Shown: positions 15,713 through 30,679 of the stretch, in pieces
How the letters are laid out: each line of letters opens with the position of its first letter
How positions within the stretch are numbered: position 1 is the first letter of the stretch
DNA from: an uncultured Bacteroidales bacterium
Lineage (GTDB): Bacteria; Bacteroidota; Bacteroidia; Bacteroidales; Bacteroidaceae
Length of the DNA stretch: 64,000 bases
Reading direction: 5' to 3'
Assembly (NCBI GenBank): GCA_902787575.1
Contig: CADAGX010000005.1
Span: 55,826-119,825 of the forward strand
The notes under the pieces: generated by a model
What the model saw: only the letters and a program-made list of their open reading frames with translations
Told to the model about the DNA's origin: nothing
Databases searched by the model: none
Program-made: the position numbers and the translations under genes

Positions 15713-15756
15713 GGCCCGTAGTTCACGGCTATGCCCCCTTATGGGTTAGGGGACTT

Positions 15757-15784
15757 CTTTGCATTTTGCATTTTGCATTTTGCA
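15757..15784. repeat. four-unit heptad array TTTTGCA
   Basis: CTTTGCA followed by three TTTTGCA units; same orientation as 15275-15302, inverted to 15402-15440. Confidence 0.85.
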
Positions 15785-15964
15785 ATAAGGGGTAGGTGTG
15801 GCCCTGCGTCGCGCCATTACCGCATGGCACAAGACACACCATGAGACGCCGCCACGTTTCGGAATTTGACAAGCATTGCCCTCCTTCGGGCTACGCCCTC
15901 ACCAATAGCTTGAACGCATAACGCGCGATTGCCCTACAGCTTCTCAAGAAAAATCCGTTTTTTC

Positions 15965-15995
15965 TTTGTTCTGCTCTCAACTTTTCGTAACTTTG
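15965..15995 (+). promoter_or_regulatory. promoter of the cobalamin operon
   Basis: TTTG (15965-15968), 19 bases, TAACTTTG (15988-15995): a full consensus match. Transcription would start near 16002, right at the 5' edge of the riboswitch. The surrounding ~38 bases closely resemble the duplicated promoter at 44629-44775. Confidence 0.88.
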
Positions 15996-16005
15996 CAGCC
16001 GGATT

Positions 16006-16193
16006 TGGTAGCAGAGGGTGCCGCAGGGTATCTGTGGCGAACACCATCTGCGCAAGGGAATCAGGTGAAAGACCTGAGCTGTTCCTGCAGCTGTAAGCCA
16101 TTCAGTTGCGGAGCCAACACATAGAAGTCACTGCCCCAGAGAGGGCGGGAAGACGTTGGCCCCGATGGCGAGCCAGAAGACCTGCCACGTCCG
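16006..16193 (+). promoter_or_regulatory. cobalamin (AdoCbl-class) riboswitch
   Basis: The conserved cobalamin aptamer elements occur in order: AAGGGAATCAGGTGAAAGAC around 16055, a GCAGCTGTAAGC core near 16090, the CACTGCC and GGGCGGGAAG segments near 16130-16150, and the B12 box GCCAGAAGACCTGCC at 16172-16186. It starts at the predicted transcription start and ends ~50 bases before the first receptor gene. CGTCCG (16188-16193) can pair with CGGACG (16237-16242), which abuts the ATG at 16244. That fits an expression platform that blocks translation when ligand is bound; this last point is inference. Confidence 0.93.
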
Positions 16194-16243
16194 CCGAAAA
16201 GTAAGACTGCTGCGTACTCCCAGGATTTGGAGACGCCGGACGA

Positions 16244-18412
16244 ATGAAGCGAAAGACAAAGCTTTGGTGCGTCGCCCTTGTGGCGACCCTTGTGGTATGG
16301 CCTGCTAAGGCTCAGACGGACACGGACACTCTGCGCGAAGTGGTGGTGACGGGTACGGGCACGGAGCGTCTGCTCCGCAATGCGCCTGTGCAGACCGAGG
16401 TCATCTCGCGCCGCATGTTGGAGGCCTACGGAGGTCGCAGCCTCGAGGAGATACTGAGCGGCCTGACGGCTTCGTTTGCCTTCAGCGAGGGCGACATGGG
16501 CAGCCAGATGCAGCTGGGCGGACTGGGCAACTCCTACGTGCTGATACTCATAGACGGCAAGCGCATACACGGAGACGTGGGCGGAGAGAACGACCTTGCG
16601 CTCATAGACGCGCAGGAGATAGAGCGCATTGAGGTGGTGAAGGGTGCGCAGTCGGCTCTCTATGGCAGCGATGCAATGGCCGGAGTGGTGAACATCATCA
16701 CGCGCAGGGCGGCTCGCGAGGCACGCGGCGACGAGGGGCTCGACTACGAGGCCTCGCAGACCGTCTGGGCCAGTCACGGCGAGACACGCCACCACCAAGG
16801 CCTCGCTTGGCAGGCCGCACGCCTGAAAGGCTACACCCACCTGCAGCTGCGCCACGGCGACGGCTGGCAGAACACCACTCGCGAGGCGGCCGAGGGACGC
16901 GTGCTCACAGACAGCCGCAACAAGACGGTGAACGAGGCCACCAACTGGCAGCTGGCACAGCGCCTCAGCTATCAGCTGGCCACGGGACTGGAGGTCTATG
17001 CCGAAGGCCGGTACTACACCAAGGAGATTTGCCGCCCCACGGACGGCCGTCACCCCAGTTGCGATGTCTATACCTACGACCTGATGTACCGCAACGCCTC
17101 GGCCTCGGCCGGTGGCAAGTGGAAGACGAAGGGCGGAGGCGTCCTTACGCTGGATGCCGACTGGAACAAGCATGCCTACTACTACGAGTACACAGACATC
17201 ACCCTGAGCGACGGCTACGACCCGCTGGGACGCTTCACCAACTACTATCCCTACTTCCCCGGAGAGAAGAACCTGCAGAGCGACCAGCAGCGGGCACTCG
17301 TGGCGCTGAAGGGCATCTTCAGCCTGCCCGCAGGCAATACGCTGAGCGCAGGTGCCGAGTATCGCTACGACTACCTCTCGGCACCCATGCGCACGGCCAC
17401 AGGCACGGCCGACGACTGGACGGGAGCCCTCTATGTGCAGGACGAGCTGGACCCCGTCCGATGGCTCAACCTGACGGCCGGACTGCGCCTCAACCAGAAC
17501 GGTGCCTTCGGCTTCCGCGCCACACCCAAACTGAGCGCCATGCTTTCGCTCGGCGACTTCCGCCTGAGAGCCGGATGGAGCCAGGGCTTCAAGACGCCTA
17601 CCACCAAGGAGCTCCACTATCGCTACCTCCACACCATGGGCTCTGCCACCTTCTTCAATATGGGCAACCGCGACCTCCGCGCGCAGAAGAGCAACTACTG
17701 GAGCTGCGGAGCCGAATACCGCGGACGCCGGCTGACGGCCTCGGTGACCGTCTATCGCAACGTGCTGGACCGCATGATTGCGCTGGTGAACGTGCCCGTG
17801 AGCGAGATTCCGCCCAGCGTCACATCGGCCTACAGCGGAGACGGCAGCGGTGCGGTGACGGCGCGCAAATACATGAACATGGAGGACGCCCACACCCACG
17901 GAGCCGACCTTAACCTTACATATAATATCGCGCGCGAGGTGACACTCGGCGGCAACTACAGCTGGCTCGACACAGAGGCCCACCAGTGGGACAGCGGTCG
18001 AGAGCGGCTCGTGCGAGTGACCATAGACGGCATGGCACACCACAGGTGGAACGCCTCGGCCACTTGGACACACCGCTTCCGCCCCGCTTACAGGCTCGTG
18101 GCCAGCCTCAGCACACGAGGCAGCAGCCGACGCTACTACCAAAACAACGGAGACGGCCGGCAGTACCAACTCTGGCGACTCAATACGAAGCACGACTTCG
18201 GAGGCGAAGGCCGACGGGCGCAGTTCACGCTCGAGGCCGGAGTGGACAACATCTTCGGCTACGTAGACCGCACCATGCGACCCTACCATCTGGGCACCAA
18301 CAGCCCCGGAACTACCTTCTATACCACACTGACCATACACCTGAAAAGAGGAAAGAGTGTTAAACAAACCATAATAACTAACTTTAAAAACAACGAAGAA
18401 AATGAAGATTAA
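16244..18412 (+). CDS. BtuB-like TonB-dependent receptor 1
   Basis: 722 aa, signal peptide ending near PAKAQ, then directly a plug domain (EVVVTGTGTERLLRNAPV resembling a TonB-box region, ILIDGKRIHGDVGG, IERIEVVKGAQSALYGSDAM, GVVNIITRR) and a 22-strand barrel. It lacks the carboxypeptidase-like domain, like BtuB and other vitamin B12 or metal-chelate receptors. It is the first gene after the B12 riboswitch, so corrinoid uptake is the likely job. Its order with the next two genes also resembles the P. gingivalis iht heme system. Odd: after the expected barrel end (TTFYTTLTIHL) there are ~23 extra polar residues read from AT-rich sequence that looks like the leader of the next gene, which it overlaps by 11 bases. 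A small indel near the end is possible. Confidence 0.92.
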   Translation: MKRKTKLWCVALVATLVVWPAKAQTDTDTLREVVVTGTGTERLLRNAPVQTEVISRRMLEAYGGRSLEEILSGLTASFAFSEGDMGSQMQLGGLGNSYVLILIDGKRIHGDVGGENDLALIDAQEIERIEVVKGAQSALYGSDAMAGVVNIITRRAAREARGDEGLDYEASQTVWASHGETRHHQGLAWQAARLKGYTHLQLRHGDGWQNTTREAAEGRVLTDSRNKTVNEATNWQLAQRLSYQLATGLEVYAEGRYYTKEICRPTDGRHPSCDVYTYDLMYRNASASAGGKWKTKGGGVLTLDADWNKHAYYYEYTDITLSDGYDPLGRFTNYYPYFPGEKNLQSDQQRALVALKGIFSLPAGNTLSAGAEYRYDYLSAPMRTATGTADDWTGALYVQDELDPVRWLNLTAGLRLNQNGAFGFRATPKLSAMLSLGDFRLRAGWSQGFKTPTTKELHYRYLHTMGSATFFNMGNRDLRAQKSNYWSCGAEYRGRRLTASVTVYRNVLDRMIALVNVPVSEIPPSVTSAYSGDGSGAVTARKYMNMEDAHTHGADLNLTYNIAREVTLGGNYSWLDTEAHQWDSGRERLVRVTIDGMAHHRWNASATWTHRFRPAYRLVASLSTRGSSRRYYQNNGDGRQYQLWRLNTKHDFGGEGRRAQFTLEAGVDNIFGYVDRTMRPYHLGTNSPGTTFYTTLTIHLKRGKSVKQTIITNFKNNEENED

Positions 18413-19520
18413 GACAATTCTCGTGTCCATGATGGCCGCAGTGGCCGGCATGGCAACCCTCGCATCCTGCGGAGACGATGACGACGAACCCAAAGTGGTG
18501 AACGGCAACGGAGAGGAAGTAGTGCTGGGCAGCAACTACATGAAGTATCAGGCAGCCGTAGATGCCGATGTGAAGAAAGCCAAGAAGCACGACAAGGCCA
18601 TCCTGCTCGTAGCCTTCGGCTCGACTTGGAACAACGCGTTCCTCGCCTTTGATGCTACAAAGAAAGCCTACGAAACAGAGTTCCCCGACTGCGATGTCTA
18701 TGTAAGCTACAGCTCCGCCATCTGCATCAACCGAGCTGCTGCAGGCGAGAACGCAGACGAGCAGGGCAACATCGTGAAGCGCAACTACTACGCTCCCAAC
18801 TTCTGGCTCCACGCTTTCGCCACGGCTAAGTACAAGGACATCACGGTGCAGTCGCTGCAGGTGATTCCCGGCGAGGAGTACAGCCGCGTAATCAATTACA
18901 TCAAGGACTTTGCCAACAACTATCTGGGCGACCTCGACGACGAATATCTGAAGGGACTCGACGGACACCTCTGGCTGGGCACTCCGCTGCTCAACAACAC
19001 AGATGATGTGGCTCATGTGGCCGACCTCATCCACCAGCTGTACAGCCAGAAGGCACAGGAAGGCGTGGTGGCATTCATGGGACACGGCAACCCCGACACC
19101 TACGACACCTACAAGGCCAACATCCGCTACACACAGCTCGAAGAGGCACTGCAGCTGAAGAGCACCAACTACTTTGTGGGAACCGTAGATATGGACGGCA
19201 ACTACAAGCAAGACGTGCTGCAGAGAATGCAGCAGAAAGGCATCACTGGCGGAAAGATAAACCTCTATCCCCTGATGAGCATCTGCGGCGACCACGGACA
19301 CAATGACATGGCCGGCGAGGGCGAAGACTACTGGGATGCAGAAGAAGAGGAGAGCGAAGACAACAGCTGGTTTGAATACTTCAGCCACAAAGGCTATCAG
19401 CCTGTCTCCAACCTCTTCGGTCTGCTCGAAGTGGAGGCACTCCGCAACGTGTGGATTGAGCACACCAAGAATCCCGTGGAGCTCGAGGACTACTACCACT
19501 CGATGTATCCCGAAGAATAA
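18402..19520 (+). CDS. cbiK: lipoprotein CbiK-type cobaltochelatase
   Basis: 372 aa. The chelatase fold is clear: LLVAFGSTW (~68-76), QVIPGEEY (153-160), AFMGHGNP with His228, and LMSICGDHGHNDMAG with His298, matching the two active-site His regions of Salmonella CbiK (MGHG and GDHxxNDM). That enzyme inserts Co2+ into sirohydrochlorin in the cytoplasm. Here the N-terminus is a lipobox, LASC23, followed by GDDDDEP, an acidic run like the surface-export signal of Bacteroidota lipoproteins. The protein is therefore probably outside the inner membrane, perhaps on the cell surface. P. gingivalis IhtB, a hemin-binding outer-membrane lipoprotein of the same family, is the closest known parallel. It may remove or exchange metals on tetrapyrroles for uptake rather than serve the biosynthetic step. 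Confidence 0.9.
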   Translation: MKIKTILVSMMAAVAGMATLASCGDDDDEPKVVNGNGEEVVLGSNYMKYQAAVDADVKKAKKHDKAILLVAFGSTWNNAFLAFDATKKAYETEFPDCDVYVSYSSAICINRAAAGENADEQGNIVKRNYYAPNFWLHAFATAKYKDITVQSLQVIPGEEYSRVINYIKDFANNYLGDLDDEYLKGLDGHLWLGTPLLNNTDDVAHVADLIHQLYSQKAQEGVVAFMGHGNPDTYDTYKANIRYTQLEEALQLKSTNYFVGTVDMDGNYKQDVLQRMQQKGITGGKINLYPLMSICGDHGHNDMAGEGEDYWDAEEEESEDNSWFEYFSHKGYQPVSNLFGLLEVEALRNVWIEHTKNPVELEDYYHSMYPEE

Positions 19521-19657: not shown

Positions 19658-20800
19658 ATGAGACGAATACTATTTGCAGTCGCCGTGTCAGCGACGTTGC
19701 TCTCCTGCGGAAACCGCGTCCACAGCGGCGAAAGGCTCGTGGCAGACGAACTCTTCATGGCGCAGGACTCGGCACTCGCCAGAGCCGAGGAGTTCAGCGA
19801 CACGGTGGAGATAAAATATGCCCGAGGCCTGCAAGTCAGATACGAAGCCGACGGAGTACACATCCTCGTGTCGAATCCCGACCCCTCGCTCAGCCAGCGG
19901 CAGACAGAGGAGTTCGTGCTCACGGCGCCACTTAGCCGTTTCGTCTGCACCACAGCGCTGCAGCTGGGCGCCTTCGAGGCGCTGGAACTGGAAGACCGTG
20001 TGGTGGGCATCAACTCGCTGAAGAACCTCTTCTCGCCAGCCGTGAAACAGCAGATTCGCAGCGGGCAAACCCGCAAGATAGGCAAGGAAGGCAACTTCGA
20101 CCTGGAAGGCGTCTTGGCGCTGAAGCCCGACCTCATCCTTGTCAGCGCTTCCAAGCACGGAGGCTTCGAGGTGCTGCGCCAGTGCGGCGTGCCGCTCATC
20201 ACTCACCACGGCTACAAAGAGACCGACCCGCTGGGACAAGCCGAGTGGCTGAAGCTGGTGGGCTTGCTTACGGGCCAGACGCGCCGGGCAAATGCCGTCT
20301 TCGCCGACATCGAGAAGAAGTACCAGACGCTCCGCAGCGAGGTGGCAGCGCATTGCCAGCACTCGGCTGCAAAGTTGCCGACTGTCGCATCCGGCAGGCA
20401 GATTCGCGACGGCTGGTATGTGGTGGGCGGGCAGAGCTATATGGCACGTCTCTTTGCCGATGCCGGAGCCGAATATGTGATGGGCGGAGGCGAAGATTCC
20501 GGTGGCCGCACGCTCGACTTTGAGGCAGCATATGCGCGTGCCGTGCATGCCGATTTCTGGCAGACGGACGGCGCCTTCGACGGCGAATATACGTTGCAGA
20601 CGCTTGCGGCCGAAGACAACCGCTACGCCACGCTCGACGCCTTCCGCAGCCGTCGCGTGCTTTTCTGCAACTTCTCTCAGACGCCATACCGCGAGTTGGC
20701 GGCCGTGCAACCACACTTCCTGCTGGCCGATTTCGTGAAAGCCTTTCATCCCGAACTGCTTCCTCACTACAATCCTAAATACTACAAACTCATAAGATGA
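19658..20800 (+). CDS. btuF: BtuF-like corrinoid-binding lipoprotein of an ABC importer
   Basis: 380 aa with a lipobox LLSC17. It has the class III periplasmic binding protein layout: an N-lobe with VLTAPLSRFVCTTALQLGAFEAL and VVGINSLKNL, DLEGVLALKPDLILV, a long linking helix, and a C-lobe with WYVVGGQSYMARLFADAGAEYV. It would hold the corrinoid in the periplasm and pass it to the permease; the likely partner is the FecCD-type permease at 29642. The protein ends with an ATGA overlap into the adenosyltransferase gene. Iron-siderophore or heme binding is the alternative, as the family fold is shared, but the B12 operon context favours corrinoid. Confidence 0.88.
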   Translation: MRRILFAVAVSATLLSCGNRVHSGERLVADELFMAQDSALARAEEFSDTVEIKYARGLQVRYEADGVHILVSNPDPSLSQRQTEEFVLTAPLSRFVCTTALQLGAFEALELEDRVVGINSLKNLFSPAVKQQIRSGQTRKIGKEGNFDLEGVLALKPDLILVSASKHGGFEVLRQCGVPLITHHGYKETDPLGQAEWLKLVGLLTGQTRRANAVFADIEKKYQTLRSEVAAHCQHSAAKLPTVASGRQIRDGWYVVGGQSYMARLFADAGAEYVMGGGEDSGGRTLDFEAAYARAVHADFWQTDGAFDGEYTLQTLAAEDNRYATLDAFRSRRVLFCNFSQTPYRELAAVQPHFLLADFVKAFHPELLPHYNPKYYKLIR

Positions 20801-21351
20801 AAATTTACACCAAGACTGGCGACCAAGGCCAGACGTCGCTCGTGGGCGGACAGCGTGTGAGCAAATGCTGTCAGCGCCTCGAAAGCTACGGAACCATAGA
20901 CGAACTCAACTCATTTGTCGGTCTGTTGCTCACGTATTGCACTGAGCCGGCCGACCGCTCATTCCTTCTTTCTGTCCAAAACACACTCTTCGTGGTGGGC
21001 GGCTACCTCGCCACAGACAATTCGCAACGCGAAATCCGGCAGGGAAACATCGTCACGGGCGAAATGATTGCGGCTGCCGAACAGGAAATCGACCGCCTGC
21101 AAGCCATCCTGCCGCCGCTGCGGCTCTTCATTCTGCCGGGTGGCACGCGTGCTGCCTCGTGTGCCCATGTCTGTCGCACCGTTTGCCGTCGTGCAGAACG
21201 CGAAATCCTGCGGCTGGCCGAGACGGGAGCCGCGGTGGATGCCGAGCTTCTCTCGTACGTAAACCGCCTGAGCGACTACTTTTTCGTGTTGGCGCGCAAA
21301 CTCAATTGCGACGAAGGCGTAGAAGATATCATTTGGCAGCGACAAAAATAA
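20797..21351 (+). CDS. PduO-type cob(I)alamin adenosyltransferase
   Basis: 184 aa. It opens MKIYTKTGDQGQTSLVGGQRV, the ATP-binding start of the PduO/MMAB family, and has the YGTIDELNSFVG helix and the conserved AASCAHVCRTVCRRAEREI segment (usually R.....R..CRRAER) followed by YVNRLSDYFFVLAR. The enzyme transfers the 5'-deoxyadenosyl group from ATP to the cobalt of reduced corrinoid. Its ATG overlaps the btuF stop (ATGA), which indicates translational coupling of uptake and adenosylation. Confidence 0.95.
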   Translation: MKIYTKTGDQGQTSLVGGQRVSKCCQRLESYGTIDELNSFVGLLLTYCTEPADRSFLLSVQNTLFVVGGYLATDNSQREIRQGNIVTGEMIAAAEQEIDRLQAILPPLRLFILPGGTRAASCAHVCRTVCRRAEREILRLAETGAAVDAELLSYVNRLSDYFFVLARKLNCDEGVEDIIWQRQK

Positions 21352-21364
21352 GAACCAACAAACG

Positions 21365-23455
21365 ATGAAACGCCAAGCAATACTGTTGCCCCTCGCCCTT
21401 ATCTTTTCGGGTGTGGCGGCTGCACAGAAAACCGATTCGCTTCGCGCCGTAACGCTCAACCCTGTGGTCATCACCGGCACGGGCACTTATCACAAAGCCG
21501 ACAATTCGCCGGTGGCTGTGAGAGTCATTTCCGCCAAGGAGATACGCGACGCTCACGCCACCACGCTTCAGGAGGCGCTAACCAGACTCACGCCCAACGT
21601 TACGACACACACCAACGGCATGGGCACGTTCGTAAATTTCAATGGCGTGAGCGACGACTACGTTCAGATACTTGTCAACGGCAAGCGCGTGAGTGGCGAC
21701 GACCGTTGGAGCCGCATCAGCATGAATAACGTGAAGCGTATAGAAGTTTTCAGCGGTGCCGCCAGTTCCCTCTATGGCAGCGATGCCATTGCCGGCGTGA
21801 TAAATATCATTACCGATGACGGAAAGGAGCAACTCTCGGCCTCGTCTTCCACAAAAGTGCTCAACAACGGACGCTTCGCGCAGCACATAGACGTGGATGC
21901 CACCGCCGGCAAGTTCTCCTCCCGCACATCCTATACCCACCAGCAGGCCGACAACTGGCAGGTGAATCCCTATCAGACCTTCCGCGAGGGCGCGCAGGAA
22001 GTGCAGAAACTCACAGGGCGGCCCATGTCGACGGGCTTCCGCAGCGAGAACATCAGCGAGCAGTTCGACTGGAACTTCAGCCAGCAGTGGTCGGCCTACC
22101 TGCGCGGAGATTTCTACGACAACGTCACGCAGCGGCCACAGGGCGCCACATACTTCACGCAGAAGGTTACGACCGATGCCGCCACAGGCGGTAAGACCTA
22201 TACCTACAGCTCGCGTCAGGCATACACCTACGACCTGCATCACCGCTCGTACACGGTAGGCGGCGGAGCGCGCTGGGTGCCCAACCGCAACACCCACATC
22301 TATCTTGATGTCTATCGCGACAATTTCCGTTCCGACTACGACTATTGGCAGACGGCCACGAAGGAGGCGTACGACGAGACGCGGAAACGCACCCACTACA
22401 CCAACGAGACGCTGCGCGGCATCCTGCGTCTCGCCTCGTGGAACAAGCTTTCGGCCGGTGCGGAGTTCGTGCAGGAGACGCTCACCAGCGAGAGCGACAA
22501 CATCCACGGCCGACACACTCAGAGTTATAACCTCTTTGCGCAGGACGAGGTGCGCATTTTCAGCCCGTTGGAGGGTGTCGTGGGATTGCGCTACGTGCAG
22601 GACCGCAATTTCGGCGCGCACTTTACACCCAATGCAGGCCTCTTTTTCCATCTTGGCGGCTTCCGCGCCCGTGCCAGCTACGCGGCGGGCTACCGCACTC
22701 CTACGCTCTCGCAGCTCTATGCCACAGATCAGGCCAAGACGGCGGCCCGTTATACGCTCTACAACCCCACGCTGAATCCCGAGAAAAATCACTTCTGGAA
22801 TCTGAATCTCGAGTACGGAAACCACTGGATGACGGCCAGCCTGACCGGTTTCGTCAACCAGATTCGTGACATGATAAACTACCGCACGCTCACACAGGCC
22901 GAGGTGGCTGCAGATGCCAGCCTTGCCGCCTTGTATGCCGAAGGCTGGACCACCATCCGACAACGCGACAACATAGACCATGCCTCGCTTCGCGGCTTCA
23001 GTGCCAACGTCAAGTTTCTGATTCCCGGAGGCGTGACACTGGGCGGTGGCTACTCCTTCACCGACTCGGAGGCCAAGACGCAGACACTCGACAAAACGAC
23101 GCAGACCTACGTGACGGCTGTCTCGCCCGTCGATAAGTCGGTTCGCAACGTCGGCAACGTGCTTGCTGCGTGGGACGGCTCGTGGCGGCGCCACCACACC
23201 AACGTGACGCTGACCGGACATCTGCAGGGCCACCGCTACAGCAGCACGTATGGTTTTGCCGAAGGCTACAGCCAGTGGGACATCTGCGTGCGGCACTCCG
23301 TGCAGATGGAGCAGTTCGTCTTGGAGCCCGGCATAGGCATCGAAAATATTTTCAACGAGCGAGACACATCGCCCTGGACTTCCAACTATTCCACTGTCAG
23401 CCCCGGCCGTTCGTTTATGGTCAGCCTGGCGCTGAAATTTGACGCCCAGAAGTGA
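21365..23455 (+). CDS. BtuB-like TonB-dependent receptor 2
   Basis: 696 aa with a signal peptide (cleavage near VAAAQ), then NPVVITGTGTYHKADNSPV, the plug (VQILVNGKRVSGDDRWSRI, IEVFSGAASSLYGSDAIA) and barrel, ending SFMVSLALKF with the expected terminal aromatic near the C-terminus. Like receptor 1 it has no carboxypeptidase-like domain. The two receptors share the plan but differ clearly in sequence, so they likely recognise different corrinoids or chelates rather than being a recent duplication. It lies 13 bases after the adenosyltransferase and before the ring-synthesis genes. Confidence 0.92.
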   Translation: MKRQAILLPLALIFSGVAAAQKTDSLRAVTLNPVVITGTGTYHKADNSPVAVRVISAKEIRDAHATTLQEALTRLTPNVTTHTNGMGTFVNFNGVSDDYVQILVNGKRVSGDDRWSRISMNNVKRIEVFSGAASSLYGSDAIAGVINIITDDGKEQLSASSSTKVLNNGRFAQHIDVDATAGKFSSRTSYTHQQADNWQVNPYQTFREGAQEVQKLTGRPMSTGFRSENISEQFDWNFSQQWSAYLRGDFYDNVTQRPQGATYFTQKVTTDAATGGKTYTYSSRQAYTYDLHHRSYTVGGGARWVPNRNTHIYLDVYRDNFRSDYDYWQTATKEAYDETRKRTHYTNETLRGILRLASWNKLSAGAEFVQETLTSESDNIHGRHTQSYNLFAQDEVRIFSPLEGVVGLRYVQDRNFGAHFTPNAGLFFHLGGFRARASYAAGYRTPTLSQLYATDQAKTAARYTLYNPTLNPEKNHFWNLNLEYGNHWMTASLTGFVNQIRDMINYRTLTQAEVAADASLAALYAEGWTTIRQRDNIDHASLRGFSANVKFLIPGGVTLGGGYSFTDSEAKTQTLDKTTQTYVTAVSPVDKSVRNVGNVLAAWDGSWRRHHTNVTLTGHLQGHRYSSTYGFAEGYSQWDICVRHSVQMEQFVLEPGIGIENIFNERDTSPWTSNYSTVSPGRSFMVSLALKFDAQK

Positions 23456-23498: not shown

Positions 23499-24902
23499 AT
23501 GAAGATTACAGTTGTGGGCATCGGTCCCGGCTCTCCGGAAGACATCACGCCTGCCGTGGCGCAAGCCCTGTCGCAGTGCGATGTAGTGGTGGGCTATAAA
23601 TATTATTTCCGGTTCCTAGCGCCGTTTCTCTCGGACGGCACGCAGTGTGTGGATTCCGGCATGAGGCGCGAGCAGGAGCGTGCCGAGGAAGCATTCCGCC
23701 TGGCCGAGGAGGGCCGGTCGGTGTGCGTGGTTTCCAGCGGCGATGCCGGCATCTATGGCATGGCCTCGCTGGTGCTCGAGCTGAAGCGCGTGCGCCAGAG
23801 CGCCATCGACGTGGAGATTCTGCCGGGCATCAGCGCGTTTCAGAAGGCTGCAGCCCTGCTTGGCGCTCCGATGAGCCACGATTTCTGTGTCATCTCGCTC
23901 AGCGACATACTTACGCCGTGGCAGCTGATAGAGAAACGCATTGTCGCAGCAGCGACGGCCGACTTCGTAACGGCTGTTTACAACCCTCGAAGCGAGGAAC
24001 GCTACTGGCAGTTGGCGCGGCTCAAGGAGCTGTTTCTCCAGCATCGCTCGCCCGAAACGCCTGTTGGCATCGTGCGGCAGGCCGGACGCGACGGCCAGAC
24101 GGTACGGCTGACGCCCCTGAAAGATTTTAATCCCGAGGAGGCAGACATGTTTACCATCGTTGTCTTGGGGAACAGCCAGTCGTACATTTGGCAAGACCGC
24201 CTTATCACGCCGCGCGGCTATCCTTTGGCAGCGGAGTCGGCGGGCGAGGAATACGGAGTGGGGCAGTCCATCATGATGCAGTCGTTCCGCACGATTCTGG
24301 GCGAACTGCGCGAGCCACGGCAGCCGCTGTGGCGACTTTGGCCGCTGCTGCACGCCGTTCACACGACGGCCGACTTCGAGATGGAACGCCTGCTGCGGGT
24401 GGACGAGCGCGCCACGGAGCTGCTTTTTCAGAAAGTACAGGCCGGAGCGTTGCGTACCATAGTGACGGACGTCTCGATGGTGGCCAGTGGCATCCGGCGT
24501 GGTGCACTCGAGCGGCTTGGGCTGAAGGCCGTCTGCTATATCAACGACCCGCGAGCCGTCGAAATGTCGCGTGCACAAGGTCTGACGCGAGCGCAGGCGG
24601 GCATCCGTCTGGCCGCAAGTGAGCATCCCGATGCACTCTACGCCTTCGGAAATGCGCCTACGGCACTGCTGGAGTTGTGCCGTCTCGTGCGTCGTGGCAA
24701 GTGCTGTCCGGCAGGCATCGTGGCGGCGCCTGTGGGATTTGTACACGTCGAGGAGAGCAAACATGCGGCCAAAGTCTTCACCGCCATCCCCAAGCTGATG
24801 GTGGAAGGCCGCAAGGGCGGCAGCGGACTGGCTGCCACATTGGTAAATAGCATTCTCACTTATGACGATGCCGAAGCACTCAGGCCGGGGAGGGACGTGT
24901 AG
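23499..24902 (+). CDS. fused precorrin-3B C17-methyltransferase (CobJ/CbiH) and precorrin-8X methylmutase (CbiC)
   Basis: 467 aa in two parts. Residues 1-~240 are a tetrapyrrole methylase: VVGIGPGSPEDITP, SGDAGIYGMA, EILPGISAFQKAAALLGAP, TAVYNPRSEER. It methylates C17 with ring contraction. Residues ~270-467 are the methylmutase: VHTTADFE with the family's catalytic His, DVSMVASGI, YAFGNAPTALLEL, VGFVHVEESK. It moves a methyl group from C11 to C12 to give hydrogenobyrinate or cobyrinate. I chose the ATG at 23499 (MKITVVGIGPG); the open frame reaches back into the receptor gene. It is followed one base later by cobL. The two steps are not consecutive in the pathway, so the fusion probably aids complex formation rather than direct channelling. 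Confidence 0.93.
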   Translation: MKITVVGIGPGSPEDITPAVAQALSQCDVVVGYKYYFRFLAPFLSDGTQCVDSGMRREQERAEEAFRLAEEGRSVCVVSSGDAGIYGMASLVLELKRVRQSAIDVEILPGISAFQKAAALLGAPMSHDFCVISLSDILTPWQLIEKRIVAAATADFVTAVYNPRSEERYWQLARLKELFLQHRSPETPVGIVRQAGRDGQTVRLTPLKDFNPEEADMFTIVVLGNSQSYIWQDRLITPRGYPLAAESAGEEYGVGQSIMMQSFRTILGELREPRQPLWRLWPLLHAVHTTADFEMERLLRVDERATELLFQKVQAGALRTIVTDVSMVASGIRRGALERLGLKAVCYINDPRAVEMSRAQGLTRAQAGIRLAASEHPDALYAFGNAPTALLELCRLVRRGKCCPAGIVAAPVGFVHVEESKHAAKVFTAIPKLMVEGRKGGSGLAATLVNSILTYDDAEALRPGRDV

Positions 24903-24903
24903 T

Positions 24904-26103
24904 ATGGAACAGCGCTTCGTGTTGATTGGGATTTGCGACAGCCAGTTTCAGGAATTGCCGGCCGCAGTTTTACAGATTATTGCACGTGGGAAAATTTTTT
25001 CCGGCGGGCGGCGTCATCATCAGCTCATGGAGTCGCGTCTGCCGGCGGGGCACAAATGGATAGATGTGACGGTGCCTCTCTCCGACGTTTACGCGCAGTA
25101 TGCCGAGGCGACGGACGAGATAGTGGTCTTTGTCTCGGGCGACCCGTTGTTTTTCGGCTTTGCATCCACCCTGCGCCGCCAGTTCCCCGGCTGTCTGCTG
25201 CGTGTCTTCCCAACGTTTAACTCCCTTCAGATGCTGGCCCACCGCATGCAGTTGCCCTACCAGTCGATGCGTTGCGTCTCGCTTACCGGCCGCGACTGGG
25301 ACGGTTTGGACCGCGCGCTCATAGAGGGCGAAGCGCTGATTGGTTGCCTTACAGACCGACAAAAAACGCCGCAGGCCGTCTGGGAACGGATGGCGACGTA
25401 TGGTTTCACCAATTACCAAATGACGGTCGGCGAGCAACTGGGCAACGAGGAGGCCGAACGTGTGGCCGACTTCGAGCCTGAGCACGCCTACGCCTTCCCC
25501 AACTGCCTTATCCTGCAGCGTCGCGAAGTGCGGCAGCGACCTTTTGGCATTCCGGAGTCGGATTTCCACCTGTTGGACGGACGCGCTCGCATGATAACGA
25601 AGATGCCCGTCCGCCTGCTTTCGCTCTCGCTGCTCGACCTTCGCCACCGCACTTCCTTCTGGGACATAGGTTTCTGCACGGGCAGCGTCAGCATCGAAGC
25701 CAAGCTTCAGTTCCCTCATTTGCGGGTTACGGCTTTCGAGGTTCGACAGGAGGGCCGCCGGCTGATGGAACTCAACAGCCGCCGCTTTGGCACACCCGGA
25801 ATAGCGACAGTGATTGGCGATTTCCTCGAGTCGGACCTCTCGCAGCTACCGCGCCCCGATGCAATCTTCGTGGGCGGACACGGCGGACGCCTCGAAGAAA
25901 TGCTCTGCCGCCTGCACGAGGTGGCACTGCCGGGTGCCACGCTGGTCTTAAATTCGGTGAGCGACGAGAGCCATGCCCTCTTCCTGCGCGCTGCGGCAGC
26001 CAGCGGATTCACGCTTTGCGGCCAGACGCGCATTGCCATAGATGAACACAATCCCATTACCATTCTGAAAGCAACAAAAGCACACTGCGATGATACGATT
26101 TGA
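24904..26103 (+). CDS. cobL: precorrin-6Y C5,15-methyltransferase (CbiE-CbiT fusion)
   Basis: 399 aa. The N-terminal ~200 residues are the CbiE tetrapyrrole methylase (LIGICDSQFQEL, FVSGDPLFFGFASTL, PTFNSLQMLAHRM). The C-terminal half is CbiT, a Rossmann methyltransferase with the SAM motif FWDIGFCTGSVSIEAK and FVGGHGGRLEEML. Together they methylate C5 and C15 and decarboxylate the ring-C acetate. I chose the ATG at 24904 (MEQRFVLIG), which starts one base after the previous stop; an in-frame ATG 14 codons upstream would overlap the previous gene and lacks similarity. The end overlaps the next gene by 14 bases. Confidence 0.94.
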   Translation: MEQRFVLIGICDSQFQELPAAVLQIIARGKIFSGGRRHHQLMESRLPAGHKWIDVTVPLSDVYAQYAEATDEIVVFVSGDPLFFGFASTLRRQFPGCLLRVFPTFNSLQMLAHRMQLPYQSMRCVSLTGRDWDGLDRALIEGEALIGCLTDRQKTPQAVWERMATYGFTNYQMTVGEQLGNEEAERVADFEPEHAYAFPNCLILQRREVRQRPFGIPESDFHLLDGRARMITKMPVRLLSLSLLDLRHRTSFWDIGFCTGSVSIEAKLQFPHLRVTAFEVRQEGRRLMELNSRRFGTPGIATVIGDFLESDLSQLPRPDAIFVGGHGGRLEEMLCRLHEVALPGATLVLNSVSDESHALFLRAAAASGFTLCGQTRIAIDEHNPITILKATKAHCDDTI

Positions 26104-27871
26104 GACTATAAACGAGGCGGGCCGCCGTTTGGCCCAGTTGATAGAACGGGAGGAGATTCCATTCGAGGGCGAGGCTGTCGTCTTCGTGGGCGCCCTGGGT
26201 ATCTGCGTGCGGCGCATGGCAGAAATGGTGCACGACAAATATACAGACCCCGCAGTCGTCTGTGTGGATACTACGGGCCGTTACGTCATTCCCGTGCTAA
26301 GCGGTCACGTGGGTGGCGCCAACGAACTGGCACGCCAGATTGCGCTCGTCACCGGCGGCGAGGCCGTAATCACCACGCAAAGCGACAATCTCGGGCTGTG
26401 GCCTTTGGACACGTTGGCCCGGACGAATGGCTGGGGCATGACGCGCCTAAGCCGTGCGGCCATGAACCGTGCGATTGCCACTTTCGTTGGCCAGCGACCC
26501 ACGGCGCTCGTGGTGGAATGCAACGATGCCGGAGCCCGCAGGATGACAGACAATCTGCCGCAGCACGTCAGCCTCTTTCGCAATTACGCAGACTATAAGG
26601 CCGCAGTGCGCAGTGGAGCGGCCTTCGAATTGCTTCTCATCGTGTCGCATCGATGCTACCCCGCGTCGGACGTCCCGACGCTGCAGTACTTTCCACGCTG
26701 TCTGCACCTCGGCATCGGATGCCAGAAGGATGCGCCCGTAGAGATTGCCCCGCAGTTGCTTGCAGAACTACGTGCGGCAGGCTACGCGCCAGAGGCCATC
26801 GCCACCATCGCCACGATAGAACTGAAGCAGCACGAGCCGTTGCTCCTCGCCCTCTCGCAGGCCATGCCGTGGGCTATGGTGCGTATTTACCCGTCCTCTG
26901 AACTGGCCAAAATAAAAATCCCGAACCCCAGTCAGAAAGTTTTCGAAGTGACGGGCTGCTACGGCGTGGCCGAGGCCAGTGCAAAAGCACACGACATACA
27001 CTCGAGACTCGTGGTCGAAAAACAGAAAGGCAGCCTTTCGCAGAACGGAAAGATAAGCCACTACACCTATGCCCTGGCCGAGGATGCTGCAGCGGTGCGG
27101 CAGGGACACATCGAGATAGTGGGTGCCGGCCCTGGCGACCCTGAGTTGGTGAGCGTGCGCGGCCGCCACTTTCTGGAGCAGGCAGACCTCATACTCTACG
27201 CCGGAAGTCTCGTTCCGCGACAGTTGACAGCCTGCGCCAAGCCCGGTGCAGTCGTCCGTAACAGCGCCACCCTGAACCTCGAAGAGCAGTTCCAGCTGAT
27301 GAAGGAGCATTACGACCGCGGAAATCTGATCGTGCGCCTTCATACCGGAGATCCCTGCATCTACGGGGCTATCCAAGAACAGATGGCACTGTTCGATGCA
27401 CACGACATGGATTATCACATCACGCCCGGCATCAGCAGTTTTCTGGCGGCGGCGGCCGAGTTGCGCAGCCAGTTTACGATTCCCGAGGAGTGCCAGACCA
27501 TAATCTTAACGCGCGGAGAAGGACGCACGCCCATGCCGGAGCGCGAGAAACTCCACATGCTCGCCGTGCATCAGAGCACAATGTGCATTTTTCTCTCGGC
27601 AACTCTGGTGCGGCAGGTGCAAGACGAACTTTTGGCGGGTGGATATGCGCCTGAGACGCCTGTGGCCGTCTGCCACAAGCTTACGTGGCCCGGCCAGCAA
27701 ATCTTCCGAGGCGAACTCCGAAACTTGGCACAGATGGTGGAGGAGCAGGGACTCACGCTGACGACGCTTATTATCGTCGGAAAGGCGGTTGACAATCGTG
27801 AGGGGCTGAGTCGCCTCTACGATAGCAAGTTTACTCATTTGTTTAGGAAGGGCGGCACGGCCGAATCGTAA
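26090..27871 (+). CDS. fused CbiG lactone hydrolase and precorrin-4 C11-methyltransferase (CobM/CbiF)
   Basis: 593 aa. Residues 1-~330 are CbiG: AVVFVGALGICVRRMAE, VIPVLSGHVGGANELARQ, LHLGIGCQKDAP, then IYPSSELAKIKIPNPS. This part opens the ring-A delta-lactone and releases acetaldehyde in the anaerobic route. From ~343 it is CobM/CbiF: IEIVGAGPGDPELVSVRG, LHTGDPCIYGAIQEQM, TPGISSFLAAAAELRSQF, TILTRGEG-like ILTRGEGRTPMPE, GKAVDNREGLSRLYD, which methylates C11. The two act on consecutive intermediates (methylation of factor IV, then lactone opening), so direct hand-over is plausible. Presence of CbiG and CbiK-type chelatase marks the anaerobic, early-cobalt pathway. Confidence 0.93.
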   Translation: MIRFETINEAGRRLAQLIEREEIPFEGEAVVFVGALGICVRRMAEMVHDKYTDPAVVCVDTTGRYVIPVLSGHVGGANELARQIALVTGGEAVITTQSDNLGLWPLDTLARTNGWGMTRLSRAAMNRAIATFVGQRPTALVVECNDAGARRMTDNLPQHVSLFRNYADYKAAVRSGAAFELLLIVSHRCYPASDVPTLQYFPRCLHLGIGCQKDAPVEIAPQLLAELRAAGYAPEAIATIATIELKQHEPLLLALSQAMPWAMVRIYPSSELAKIKIPNPSQKVFEVTGCYGVAEASAKAHDIHSRLVVEKQKGSLSQNGKISHYTYALAEDAAAVRQGHIEIVGAGPGDPELVSVRGRHFLEQADLILYAGSLVPRQLTACAKPGAVVRNSATLNLEEQFQLMKEHYDRGNLIVRLHTGDPCIYGAIQEQMALFDAHDMDYHITPGISSFLAAAAELRSQFTIPEECQTIILTRGEGRTPMPEREKLHMLAVHQSTMCIFLSATLVRQVQDELLAGGYAPETPVAVCHKLTWPGQQIFRGELRNLAQMVEEQGLTLTTLIIVGKAVDNREGLSRLYDSKFTHLFRKGGTAES

Positions 27872-27872: not shown

Positions 27873-29660
27873 ATGATACTGGTATTCGGAGGAACCACAG
27901 AAGGGCGTTTGGCCGCCGAAGTCTGCGAGGCAGCGGGCAAGACGTACTATTATTCCACTCGAGGCAGTGGGCAGGACGTGCCTTTGGTGCACGGCCAAAG
28001 GCTGACGGGTGGCATGACGGCCGCCGAAATCCGGCACTTTGTGCAGGAGCGTGGCGTACGATGTATCGTGGATGCAGCGCATCCGTTTGCAGAGGAATTG
28101 CACCGTGCTGTCGCAGAGGCGGGTGTGCCGGTGGTGCGATTGCAGCGCGAGCTTGGCGAGCCGACGGAGGGCGTTACGTATTGCTGCGACGTGGAGGAGG
28201 CGCTCGAACGCTTGCTGGCCGAGCCGGCAAGGCGGCTGCTTGCGCTTACTGGCGTCAAGAGCATCGAAAAGCTGGCGCCATATTGGCGGCAGCACACGAC
28301 GTTCTTCCGGATCCTGAACCGCCCGGAGAGCCTGCGGCGTGCGAGCGAGGCTGGTTTTCCAGCGGAGCAACTTCTGTATTACGACGAAGAACTTTCCTTG
28401 CCGACGACGGACGAAGAAGCGGAACTGATGCAGCGGATAGGCTGCGATGTCGTGCTGACAAAGCAGAGCGGAGCGAACGGAGGTCTCGAAGCAAAGACGG
28501 AGGCTGCGAAGCGTCTGGGACTGCGATGCTTGGTGATTGAGCCACCGAGGCTGCCGGAAGCGTGGACGTATGTGACGGGGAAGCATGGGCTAAGGAGGGA
28601 GATAGAGAGAAAGGTGCCTGAGTTTTTCGAGCTGAAGACGGGCCTTACTACGGGGACTTGCGCGCAGGCGGCGACAAAAGCGGCGCTGGTGTCGCTGTTG
28701 AGTGGGGCGGAAGTGGAGGCTGTGACGGTGTTGATGCCGTGCGGAGAGCGTGTGAGCGTGGAGGTGGAGCCTGAGGGGAGCGGCGCTGCGTCGGTTGTAA
28801 AGTGTTGGAGCGACGACCCGGATGTGACGCGCGGGTGCAGGGTAAGGGCAGAAGTGGCCTTTCTGGAACGGGGCGCGAAGGGTGTGAGATTCGAGCGCGG
28901 ACGTGGCGTGGGCGTTGCGACGTTGGAGGGACTTGGGATTCCCGTGGGAGAGGTTGCGGTGAGCGTTGCGGTAAGGAAGGCAATTGAGGCGGAAGTGAAA
29001 GGGATGACGGAGCGGGGCGTGAGGGTTCGGCTTTCGATAGAGAACGGCGAAGTGTTGGCGCGGCAGACGTTCAACGGCAGAGTTGGAGTGGAGGGCGGTC
29101 TGAGTATTATCGGGACGTCGGGCGTGGTGATTCCGTTCAGCAACGAAGCGTTCGTGGAGAGCATTGGAAGGGAGATGGAAGTGGCGGCGGCAAATTATCG
29201 GAGCGAAAGCGGAGCAAGAACGGAGGGAGAACGGAGGGGCATCGGACTTGCTTCGGGGAAAATGGGCGAGGAAATGTTGCTGCGCGAGGAGCCTGATTTG
29301 TGGGTGATTCACTATGGGAATTTTGTGGGCGCGGCGCTCAGGAAGGCGTACGAGGTGGGTTTTCGTCGCGTGGTGCTCGGCATAATGATAGGGAAGGCTG
29401 TGAAACTGGCGGCTGGCAACCTTGACACGCATTCGCACAAGGTGTCGATGGACAAGGATTTTCTGGTGAGAGTGGCGGAAAGCGTGGGTGTCGGGGATGC
29501 GCGGCAGCGTGTGGAGGGAATACGGATGGCGCGTGAGCTTTGGGGCTGTATGCCGCCGGAATTTTTTGAGCGACTGCGGGAACTCTGCCAGCAGCATTGC
29601 AGGGAGGTGTTTCCGACGGGTGAAATTGTAATTAGGATGTTATGCGACAGAGAGATGTAA
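27873..29660 (+). CDS. fused precorrin-6A reductase (CbiJ/CobK) and C1-methyltransferase (CbiD)
   Basis: 595 aa, starting one base after the previous stop. Residues 1-~245 are CbiJ: MILVFGGTTEGRLAAEV, RCIVDAAHPFAEELHRAV, RLLALTGVKSIEKL, VLTKQSGANGGLEAKTEAA. It reduces the ring with NADPH. From ~251, LKTGLTTGTCAQAATKAALVSL is the CbiD signature, followed by GRGVGVATLEGLGIPVGE and GIMIGKAVKLAAGNLDTHSHK; CbiD methylates C1 in the anaerobic pathway. The CbiD half uses more G-ending and AGG/GGG codons than the genes upstream, so the fusion point coincides roughly with a change in base use. It overlaps the permease gene by 19 bases. Confidence 0.93.
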   Translation: MILVFGGTTEGRLAAEVCEAAGKTYYYSTRGSGQDVPLVHGQRLTGGMTAAEIRHFVQERGVRCIVDAAHPFAEELHRAVAEAGVPVVRLQRELGEPTEGVTYCCDVEEALERLLAEPARRLLALTGVKSIEKLAPYWRQHTTFFRILNRPESLRRASEAGFPAEQLLYYDEELSLPTTDEEAELMQRIGCDVVLTKQSGANGGLEAKTEAAKRLGLRCLVIEPPRLPEAWTYVTGKHGLRREIERKVPEFFELKTGLTTGTCAQAATKAALVSLLSGAEVEAVTVLMPCGERVSVEVEPEGSGAASVVKCWSDDPDVTRGCRVRAEVAFLERGAKGVRFERGRGVGVATLEGLGIPVGEVAVSVAVRKAIEAEVKGMTERGVRVRLSIENGEVLARQTFNGRVGVEGGLSIIGTSGVVIPFSNEAFVESIGREMEVAAANYRSESGARTEGERRGIGLASGKMGEEMLLREEPDLWVIHYGNFVGAALRKAYEVGFRRVVLGIMIGKAVKLAAGNLDTHSHKVSMDKDFLVRVAESVGVGDARQRVEGIRMARELWGCMPPEFFERLRELCQQHCREVFPTGEIVIRMLCDREM

Positions 29661-30679
29661 CGTTATTTTTGCTGGCGGCAAGCATTCCGTTGCTGGGAAT
29701 GCTGAATCTGGCCGTGGGTTCGGTGGGCATTCCGTGGAGTGCGGTGTGGCGGATTCTGATGGGCGACGAGGGGACGGACGAGGTGTGGCGCAACATTGTG
29801 CTGGGGACTCGTTTGCCGCAGACGCTGACGGCAGTGGCGTGCGGTGCTTCGTTGTCGGTGGCGGGACTGGAGATGCAGACCGTTTTCAGAAATCCGCTGG
29901 CGGGACCTTCGGTGCTGGGCATCAGCAGTGCGGCTTCGCTGGGTGTGGCTTTTGTGGTCTTACTGAGCGGTGCTTTGGGCGGCGGGTTCCTGTGGCGTTT
30001 TGGTGTGCTGGGGAATGCGGCTCTGACGCTGGCAGCTGCTGTTGGCGCGCTGGCTGTGATGGGCCTCATGGTGTTTCTCTCGCGGCGTGTGGAGGGAAAT
30101 GCGACGCTGCTGGTGGCTGGTGTGCTGATAGGCTACATTGCGACGGCTGTGACGGGTGTGCTGAAATCTTTTGCGAGCGAGGAGAATCTGCACTCGTTTG
30201 TGGTGTGGGGGTTGGGCTCGTTCTCGCGTGTGACGGGCGGCCAAGTGGGTGTGTTTGTCGGGCTGTCGGGTGTGTTTGTGGCTGCGTCGCTGTTGCTGGC
30301 TAAGCCGTTGAACCTGCTGTTGCTGGGCGAACGCTACGCGGCGAACTTGGGACTGAACGTGCGACGTGCGCGAATGTGGTGTATCGGCTCTGCCGGTGTG
30401 CTGACGGCGGTGGCGACGGCGTACTGCGGGCCTGTGATGTTTCTGGGTCTGGCTGTGCCGCATATCTGCCGTGGCTTGCTGGGTACGGAGGACCACCGCG
30501 TGCTGCTGCCTGCGTCGTTGGGTTGCGGAGCATCGATGGCTCTGCTTTGTAACTTGCTGGCGCGGCTGCCGGGATTTGAAGGCACGCTGCCGGTGAATTC
30601 CGTGACGGCACTGACGGGCGCGCCCGTGGCACTGTGGGTGCTACTGAGGAGAAAGAAGGGTGGCGGCGGCAACGTGTGA
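29642..30679 (+). CDS. btuC: FecCD-type permease, probable BtuC
   Basis: 345 aa, about ten hydrophobic helices. Family motifs: LGTRLPQTLTAVACGASLSVAGLEMQ (residues ~52-77), RNPLAGPSVLGISSAASLGV, VVWGLGSFS, and GPVMFLGLAVPHICRGLLG, the loop that contacts the ATPase. It would move corrinoid from BtuF into the cytoplasm. The start lies inside the end of the CbiJ-CbiD gene (19-base overlap). No BtuD-like ATPase follows here or anywhere in the window, so the energising subunit must be encoded elsewhere. A heme or siderophore permease is possible from fold alone; context favours B12. Confidence 0.88.
   Translation: MRQRDVTLFLLAASIPLLGMLNLAVGSVGIPWSAVWRILMGDEGTDEVWRNIVLGTRLPQTLTAVACGASLSVAGLEMQTVFRNPLAGPSVLGISSAASLGVAFVVLLSGALGGGFLWRFGVLGNAALTLAAAVGALAVMGLMVFLSRRVEGNATLLVAGVLIGYIATAVTGVLKSFASEENLHSFVVWGLGSFSRVTGGQVGVFVGLSGVFVAASLLLAKPLNLLLLGERYAANLGLNVRRARMWCIGSAGVLTAVATAYCGPVMFLGLAVPHICRGLLGTEDHRVLLPASLGCGASMALLCNLLARLPGFEGTLPVNSVTALTGAPVALWVLLRRKKGGGGNV

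What the first reader, a model, noticed from the sequence alone, without database searches (positions are those of the whole stretch)
18402..19520. Exported CbiK-type chelatase under a B12 riboswitch, in iht-like gene order
Seen: full CbiK active-site regions (His228, His298) behind a lipobox and an acidic GDDDDE run, so the protein should leave the cytoplasm and perhaps reach the surface. Known: P. gingivalis IhtB is an outer-membrane hemin-binding lipoprotein of this family, encoded between a TonB receptor and a periplasmic binding protein, the order found here (receptor, chelatase, BtuF). Inference: the protein may strip or exchange metal on external corrinoids or other tetrapyrroles to feed the B12 pathway, rather than load cobalt into sirohydrochlorin in the cytoplasm. 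A riboswitch-controlled extracellular chelatase in a corrinoid operon would be a distinct scavenging system.
Basis: partly seen in the sequence, partly recalled or inferred. Interest (0 to 1): 0.7.

Follow-up and report, generated by a model that had tools for sequence, protein, structure and literature searches.

The report
Surface cobalt chelatase feeding vitamin-B12 synthesis
This gut-type bacterium carries, under a vitamin-B12 switch, a cobalt-inserting enzyme that appears to be sent out of the cell and paired with an uptake receptor, while early steps of the pathway and an internal version of that enzyme were not found, which suggests that it scavenges half-made B12 precursors from neighbours and loads them with cobalt outside the cell.

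Summary
ORF 18402-19520 encodes a class II (CbiK-type) chelatase with Glu159, His228 and His298 intact, behind a lipoprotein signal and an acidic surface-export motif. It overlaps a TonB receptor gene by 11 bases and lies under a cobalamin riboswitch, ahead of a near-complete corrin pathway. Relatives repeat this: receptor adjacent in 76 of 80 named loci, riboswitch in 33 of 35 distinct loci scanned. No HemC, SUMT, CbiL, CbiX, CobN or second CbiK was found in the host assembly (86.9% complete). Of 36 family genomes with CbiK and corrin-ring genes, all 15 with a catalytic Sec-type CbiK have CbiL, and all 21 with only a catalytic lipoprotein type lack it. In nine of those 21 the Sec-type paralogue survives only as a pseudo-chelatase. 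Best reading: a surface cobaltochelatase-receptor pair metallates and imports an external B12 precursor that the cell cannot make. In CbiL-less species the formal entry point is cobalt-factor III. Substrate and activity are inferred, not shown. Nearest known: IhtB/FetB of P. gingivalis and Desulfovibrio CbiKP.

The parts
15990..16203 (+). Cobalamin riboswitch (RF00174) at the head of the operon
   Evidence: cmscan 82.3 bits, E 9.5e-19; also found at 32 of 34 other distinct lipoprotein-CbiK loci scanned
16244..18412 (+). TonB-dependent receptor 1 (TonB1), presumed partner of the lipoprotein chelatase
   Evidence: PF00593, PF07715; best solved relatives are colicin I receptor, enterobactin receptors and BtuB; adjacent upstream of CbiK in 76 of 80 named loci
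18402..19520 (+). CbiK-type class II chelatase, predicted surface lipoprotein: signal peptide, Cys23, acidic motif GDDDDE, Glu159, His228, His298
   Evidence: PF06180; PDB relatives 9b86 FetB, 2xvx CbiKP, 1qgo CbiK; AlphaFold2 model pLDDT 86.9, pTM 0.84; motifs
19658..20800 (+). BtuF-type periplasmic-binding lipoprotein, no acidic export motif (C-GNRVHSG)
   Evidence: PF01497 1.2e-20; N-terminus read
20797..21351 (+). PduO-type cob(I)alamin adenosyltransferase
   Evidence: PF01923; TIGR00636 over cut-off
21365..23455 (+). TonB-dependent receptor 2 (TonB2), BtuB-like
   Evidence: PF00593, PF07715; best NCBIfam hit TIGR01779 TonB-B12, below cut-off; PDB relatives include colicin I receptor and BtuB
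23499..24902 (+). CbiH-CbiC fusion (C17-methyltransferase / methylmutase)
   Evidence: TIGR01466 331 bits over cut-off, PF02570
24862..26103 (+). CbiE-CbiT fusion
   Evidence: TIGR02467, TIGR02469 over cut-off
26090..27871 (+). CbiG-CbiF fusion
   Evidence: PF11760, PF11761, PF01890; TIGR01465 over cut-off
27873..29660 (+). CbiJ-CbiD fusion
   Evidence: PF02571, PF01888; TIGR00312 over cut-off
29642..30679 (+). BtuC-type permease (FecCD family)
   Evidence: PF01032 1.9e-71
30753..32342 (+). CobU-CobT fusion
   Evidence: PF02283, PF02277
32296..33093 (+). CobS
   Evidence: PF02654
32982..34415 (+). CbiA/CbiP-type amidotransferase 1 (start codon not settled)
   Evidence: PF01656, PF07685
34419..35858 (+). 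CbiA/CbiP-type amidotransferase 2
   Evidence: PF01656, PF07685
35851..36861 (+). CobD-like (threonine-phosphate decarboxylase)
   Evidence: TIGR01140 265.3 bits, under its cut-off of 290.55, but the best of its hits
36917..37855 (+). CbiB
   Evidence: PF03186; TIGR00380 over cut-off

Best explanation
The protein is a cell-surface, lipid-anchored cobaltochelatase that works with TonB receptor 1 as a capture, metallate and import unit, switched on when B12 is scarce. It takes a metal-free, B12-type tetrapyrrole precursor released by neighbouring bacteria, inserts Co2+ outside the cytoplasm and passes the cobalt complex to TonB1. BtuF/BtuC-type transport then carries it to the cytoplasmic Cbi enzymes. 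Shown by sequence: export signal, acidic motif, intact catalytic residues, CbiK fold (model), riboswitch, overlap and conserved pairing with TonB1, the downstream corrin operon, and failure to find the early pathway or an internal chelatase in the assembly and most relatives tested. Inferred: chelatase activity, metal and substrate identity, physical pairing with TonB1, and direction of flow. In CbiL-less genomes such as this one the formal entry point is the product of CbiL (cobalt-factor III).
Against: No activity, substrate or localisation was measured. The nearest studied homologue, FetB/IhtB, is reported as heme-linked, as a putative ferrochelatase or reverse ferrochelatase, and as inserting Mn into protoporphyrin (passages of PMC10913741, PMC13227078 and the review PMC13402209; the primary Mn paper is not held). 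The stricter export criterion (acid at +3 and +4) is met by only 38 of 76 relatives. Host assembly is 86.9% complete, so each absence in it could be a gap; the relatives at 90-100% completeness are the stronger evidence. CobN is over cut-off in 9 of 42 genomes, including P. koreensis and P. ruminicola. G043 has CbiL but no CbiK found. P. bennonis (L196) and P. koreensis (L179) showed no riboswitch in the stretch scanned. HemA, HemL, HemB and HemD were not searched. No BtuD was seen among the operon genes scanned. Free factor II or III in the rumen was not shown.
Confidence: 0.5

Rival explanations
1. Heme or porphyrin processing as proposed for IhtB/FetB: the lipoprotein removes or exchanges metal on external heme or protoporphyrin, and its product serves iron or heme nutrition; its place in the B12 regulon reflects cobalt or tetrapyrrole economy rather than corrin synthesis.
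For: FetB is at the base of the clade and the closest solved structure by phmmer and Foldseek; P. gingivalis literature assigns heme, ferrochelatase or Mn-PPIX chemistry (passages).
Against: Cobalamin riboswitch at 33 of 35 loci, including Porphyromonas somerae and levii; linkage to cbi genes; PF06180 presence tracks ring genes, scored by cross-hits of the CbiL profile to CbiH/CbiF: 36 of 39 CbiK+ genomes against 1 of 41 CbiK-; IhtB itself is described as not regulated by PgFur.
Confidence: 0.2
2. A BtuG-like capture lipoprotein: the CbiK fold serves to bind an already metallated corrin precursor or corrinoid at the surface and hand it to TonB1, with no catalysis.
For: Receptor-lipoprotein pairing resembles BtuB-BtuG (PMC10404256, title and start of abstract in listings); overlap with TonB1.
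Against: Glu159, His228 and His298 equivalents are kept in all 80 homologues, while a related exported paralogue that lost them exists, showing that the residues can be lost.
Confidence: 0.17
3. The CbiL-less corrin operon is decaying or serves only late salvage (cobinamide, cobyrinate), and CbiK is a relic carried with it.
For: No CbiL, SUMT or HemC found; BtuF, BtuC, CobU, CobS and CobT suffice for cobinamide salvage (recalled); [quoted passage not shown]
Against: CbiH, F, G, D, J, E, T and C domains are all present in the window; ring genes are kept in CbiL-less genomes of eight genera, though not every gene was checked in every genome; catalytic residues of CbiK are conserved; late salvage needs no ring enzyme.
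Confidence: 0.08
4. One reading: dechelation or metal exchange on external finished corrinoids.
For: Exported chelatase homologue in a corrinoid operon.
Against: Cobalt in the corrin ring is not known to be exchangeable by class II chelatases (recalled); the operon's ring-building genes would not be needed.
Confidence: 0.03

Closest known systems
IhtB / FetB of Porphyromonas gingivalis (PDB 9b86)
   Different: Reported as a heme or Mn-porphyrin protein. Here it heads an operon of corrin genes under a cobalamin riboswitch, is only 30-32% identical and has extra segments
CbiKP of Desulfovibrio vulgaris (2xvx, 2xvz)
   Different: Periplasmic, and its host also has a second functional CbiK, for B12 (recalled; title of Lobo 2008 seen). 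Here no cytoplasmic copy was found
CbiK of Salmonella (1qgo), cytoplasmic sirohydrochlorin cobaltochelatase
   Same: Fold and catalytic residues
   Different: Location; genomic context without early tetrapyrrole genes; below the NCBIfam equivalog cut-off
BtuB-BtuG vitamin B12 uptake complex of Bacteroides
   Same: TonB receptor plus surface lipoprotein for B12 uptake (listing of PMC10404256)
   Different: The lipoprotein here is a chelatase homologue with intact active site, and the operon builds the corrin ring
Tetrapyrrole-precursor salvagers; corrin pathway of P. gingivalis (Roper 2000, cited in PMC6461909, not read)
   Same: Corrin genes without precorrin-2 synthesis
   Different: Known concept lists ALA, PBG, HMB, UroIII and precorrin-2 types (PMC8123684 passage); no uptake or metallation machinery named in the passages read; here CbiL is missing too

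Membership tests
Class II chelatase, CbiK family (PF06180) | Profile match over the curated cut-off across the domain | tested here: met
   150.8 bits against 26.2, residues 65-358, profile 1-260 of 262
Class II chelatase, CbiK family (PF06180) | Catalytic Glu and two C-terminal-domain His | tested here: met
   Glu159, His228, His298; Salmonella His145/His207 as described in PMC7689651 passages; role of the Glu recalled
Class II chelatase, CbiK family (PF06180) | Bilobal chelatase fold | tested here: met
Sirohydrochlorin cobaltochelatase CbiK, equivalog NF047852 | Score over the equivalog cut-off | tested here: not met
   109.3 against 400 bits
Sirohydrochlorin cobaltochelatase CbiK, equivalog NF047852 | Cobalt insertion into sirohydrochlorin | not testable with these tools
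   No biochemistry possible
IhtB/FetB-type exported CbiK lipoprotein | Lipoprotein signal peptide | tested here: met
   LASC-GDDDDE; 78 of 80 relatives
IhtB/FetB-type exported CbiK lipoprotein | TonB receptor - lipoprotein - binding protein gene order | tested here: met
   Iht order as described in PMC10913741
IhtB/FetB-type exported CbiK lipoprotein | Same clade as FetB | tested here: met
   19-row clade with the FetB fragment as sister to the rest, 100/97
IhtB/FetB-type exported CbiK lipoprotein | Heme binding or porphyrin metallation | not testable with these tools
   -
Surface-exposed Bacteroidota lipoprotein (LES motif) | Acidic residues just after the lipidated Cys | tested here: met
   C-G-D-D-D-D-E in the window protein; 75 of 76 relatives with >=2 acidic at +2..+7, but both +3 and +4 acidic in only 38 of 76; BtuF control 1 of 23 and 0 of 23; motif from PMC6222051 passages
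Tetrapyrrole-precursor salvager (Shelton 2018) | Early tetrapyrrole genes missing | tested here: inconclusive
   HemC and SUMT not found in the 86.9% complete assembly; HemA, HemL, HemB, HemD not searched
Tetrapyrrole-precursor salvager (Shelton 2018) | Complete corrin-ring set | tested here: not met
   CbiL not found, although the assembly is incomplete; the other ring enzymes are in the window

The most novel reading that the evidence does not exclude
Bacteroidales run a two-gate, outside-in B12 pathway. Gate 1 is a periplasmic (Sec-type) CbiK that metallates imported sirohydrochlorin for CbiL. Gate 2 is the surface lipoprotein CbiK with TonB1, which metallates a precursor that enters after CbiL, namely factor III (20-methylsirohydrochlorin) shed by neighbours. 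Lineages that dropped gate 1 lost CbiL with it, and in one genus their periplasmic CbiK became a pseudo-enzyme. This would be a corrin pathway that starts at cobalt-factor III with cobalt inserted on the cell surface. A still bolder form, not excluded, is that such species skip C20 methylation altogether.
Probability: 0.25. Interest if true: 0.85.

Novelty: new variant of a known kind. Interest (0 to 1): 0.72.

Why it matters
P. gingivalis and other Bacteroidales keep corrin-ring genes although they lack the steps to precorrin-2, a puzzle noted in 2000 (Roper, cited in PMC6461909). An exported chelatase paired with a receptor under B12 control offers a concrete, testable answer: the precursor comes from outside and is metallated before it enters. 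It would add early cobalamin intermediates to the list of nutrients exchanged in gut, rumen and oral communities, recast the Iht system, and explain why annotation scores such genomes as incomplete B12 producers.

Tried and rejected
Rejected: a mis-called start hiding a cytoplasmic protein (lipoprotein Cys conserved in 78 of 80 homologues). Rejected: a hidden cytoplasmic CbiX; the PF01903 hits in the 80 genomes fall on the exported CbiK itself, apart from one 22.4-bit extra match in G024. Considered: class I CobN as the cobalt inserter; 12 of 42 genomes with a match, 9 over the cut-off, none in the host, so it cannot be the general answer, though P. koreensis and P. ruminicola have one. Considered: CbiL hidden in a fusion; the host's four tetrapyrrole-methylase hits are CbiH, CbiF, CbiE and an RsmI-like gene. 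In single-contig P. koreensis the four hits are CbiH, CbiF, CbiE and an RsmI-like gene by position and reading; P. ruminicola gave three hits (CbiF, CbiH, RsmI-like), its CbiE domain being missed by that profile, so a very divergent CbiL could also be missed. Not settled: whether named genomes RGIG9776, RGIG6796 and RUG12062 (L167, L175, L195), which carry both CbiK types in one operon, also have CbiL; no genome search was left. The weak phylum matches outside f18 (G125, G207, G208, G274; also G249 in f18; 20-34 bits) were not characterised; the script printed nothing for them. Literature on extracellular metallation of B12 precursors: none seen in the listings; subscription papers are mostly not held.

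Dropped before counts: G022, G003 and G108 (no ring gene found) were left out of the CbiL table, which leaves 36 of 39 CbiK+ genomes; the Fisher value printed was for 15/0/0/22, that is with G022 kept. The BtuF control counts only the 23 BtuF proteins whose lipobox the script recognised; the others in those loci were not scored.
Full report
What is there. Window 15990-37855 is one B12 region: a cobalamin riboswitch, a TonB receptor, the CbiK-type lipoprotein, a BtuF-type lipoprotein, a PduO adenosyltransferase, a second, BtuB-like receptor, the fusions CbiH-C, CbiE-T, CbiG-F and CbiJ-D, a BtuC permease, CobU-T, CobS, two CbiA/CbiP-type amidotransferases, a CobD-like protein and CbiB. The receptor and chelatase genes overlap by 11 bases. 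No BtuD was recognised among the genes scanned. The host assembly has 2.65 Mb in 34 contigs and is 86.9% complete. The closest named relatives are Bacteroidaceae and Prevotella MAGs, many of them from rumen.

Location. A lipoprotein cysteine was found in 78 of 80 homologues. The residues after it are acidic in 75 of 76 scored homologues (at least two of positions +2 to +7) but in 1 of the 23 BtuF lipoproteins of the same loci that the script recognised, which fits the S(D/E)n surface-export motif described for Bacteroides (PMC6222051, passages). By the stricter criterion of acid at both +3 and +4 the counts are 38 of 76 and 0 of 23. Surface exposure is therefore likely, not shown.

Regulation and partner. 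RF00174 precedes the operon in 33 of 35 distinct lipoprotein-CbiK loci scanned; the two misses are P. bennonis and P. koreensis. In the 34 lipoprotein rows (two duplicates included, window not) the first recognised gene downstream on the same strand is a TonB receptor. Of seven Sec-type loci scanned, five have a riboswitch (L064, L067, L069, L073, L243) and two do not (L066, L072). TonB1 sits directly upstream in 76 of 80 named loci; at least one corrin-ring gene lies in the locus in 55 of 80 and any ring or late gene in 68 of 80. In Porphyromonas somerae and levii the receptor-chelatase pair also lies under a cobalamin riboswitch. That bears on the Iht system, which has so far been read as heme or iron uptake (PMC10913741, passages).

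What the genome cannot do, as far as found. In the host: one PF06180 gene, no PF01903, no PF02514, no PF01379; the only TIGR01469 hit is CbiF; only 35-36-bit cross-hits to TIGR01467; the four PF00590 hits are CbiH, CbiF, CbiE and an RsmI-like gene. In 80 family genomes (all 39 with CbiK and 41 of the 82 without, from the 121): HemC in 4, only one of them (G027) with CbiK. PF01903 hits 14 of 80, each on the exported CbiK itself, with one further 22.4-bit match in G024. SUMT over cut-off in 3 of 43, with one sub-cut-off candidate in G024. CobN over cut-off in 9 of 42. HemA, HemL, HemB and HemD were not searched. Named genomes: HemC 0 of 7. P. koreensis (one contig) and P. ruminicola KHT3 show neither SUMT nor CbiL among their methylase hits. 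[quoted passage not shown] the last three are present here as fusions, so part of that list may be annotation loss.

Contrast group. In a phylum sample of 392 genomes 22 had PF06180, 19 over the cut-off. Fourteen with full-length matches belong to family f18 (Chlorobiaceae by my guess; not named by the tool). Their CbiK shows no signal peptide by eye, and 13 of 14 have HemC. So the cytoplasmic form goes with the ability to make the ring and the exported form with its absence. The comparison rests on one contrast family.

Two kinds of exported CbiK. A tree of 71 sequences separates the lipoprotein clade from a Sec-type clade of shorter proteins; a 35-row tree puts FetB at the base of the lipoprotein clade. 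A third set, read in nine genomes of one genus, nests inside the Sec-type clade (seven rows) and has lost the equivalents of Glu159, His228 and His298 (five aligned rows; the other four read by eye). Against CbiL: among the 36 CbiK+ genomes with ring genes (scored by cross-hits of the CbiL profile to CbiH or CbiF), the 15 with a catalytic Sec-type copy (13 short type, 2 of a Sec-type offshoot of the lipoprotein clade in G002 and G067) all have CbiL, at 126-168 bits, only one of these over the curated cut-off of 163.25; the 21 with only a catalytic lipoprotein copy show nothing above 45 bits. The nine with the pseudo-chelatase are among these 21. Genus g11 contains both states (G092, G047). The Fisher value (1.1e-10, with 22 instead of 21) ignores kinship and only says that the pattern is not noise. 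Exceptions: G043 has CbiL with no CbiK found; its operon runs to about 2.4 kb from a contig end. G003 has a Sec-type copy but no ring genes.

Reading. If the cell cannot make uroporphyrinogen III or precorrin-2 and has no internal chelatase, the ring genes can only be fed from outside, and cobalt must be inserted outside the cytoplasm or be present already. The lipoprotein CbiK is the only intact candidate found in this genome. The loss of CbiL together with the periplasmic chelatase, while the surface chelatase stays intact, suggests that the two chelatases serve different entry points: sirohydrochlorin before CbiL for the Sec-type, and a later precursor (formally factor III) for the lipoprotein. 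The first inference I hold at about 0.5, the second at about 0.25. Substrate, metal and activity are not shown.

Against this. FetB is reported to insert manganese into protoporphyrin (review PMC13402209, passages; the primary paper is not held), and IhtB is called a putative ferrochelatase or reverse ferrochelatase (PMC13227078, passages). Class II chelatases are described as mostly lacking metal specificity (PMC7689651, passages). Absences in draft genomes are never final. The operon could be a relic, although the presence of every ring enzyme except CbiL and the conserved catalytic residues speak against it.

Novelty. Exported CbiK proteins and tetrapyrrole-precursor salvage are both known. 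The combination appears new within the papers searched (listings): a B12-riboswitch-controlled receptor-chelatase pair as the only chelatase found for a corrin pathway without its first steps, and the match between chelatase type and CbiL. Most subscription papers are not held.

Noticed in passing
L241:8393-9622 (-) (Porphyromonas somerae) and L242:8868-10124 (+) (P. levii): A SUMT-like protein (uroporphyrinogen-III methyltransferase, by PF00590 and by eye) with a C-terminal extension that looks HemD-like (by eye, not searched) begins with what reads as a Sec signal peptide: apparently an exported precorrin-2-forming enzyme, which would need SAM outside the cytoplasm.
   Followed up: partly
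L020, L021, L024, L026, L027, L070, L071, L254, L255: Signal-peptide CbiK paralogues of one genus that lost all three catalytic residues (pseudo-chelatases), in CbiL-less genomes.
   Followed up: partly
L204, L206, L207 (Parabacteroides, Mediterranea, Odoribacter): Very similar riboswitch-TonB1-CbiK cassettes in three different families (short branches; riboswitches), suggesting lateral transfer.
   Followed up: no
L061:7998-8999 (-) (G002) and L062:8879-9880 (+) (G067): Tandem CbiK genes: a lipoprotein copy followed by a diverged Sec-type copy from the lipoprotein clade, with CbiL in the same stretch.
   Followed up: partly
L167, L175, L195: Lipoprotein and catalytic Sec-type CbiK in one operon, each preceded by a TonB receptor; predicted to have CbiL, not checked.
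   Followed up: no
L253:8514-9485 (G043): CbiL present with ring genes but no CbiK found in the genome; the operon runs to about 2.4 kb from a contig end.
   Followed up: partly
window 15270-15790: Intergenic stretch ahead of the riboswitch with repeated TGCAAAATGC-like units, seen on reading.
   Followed up: no
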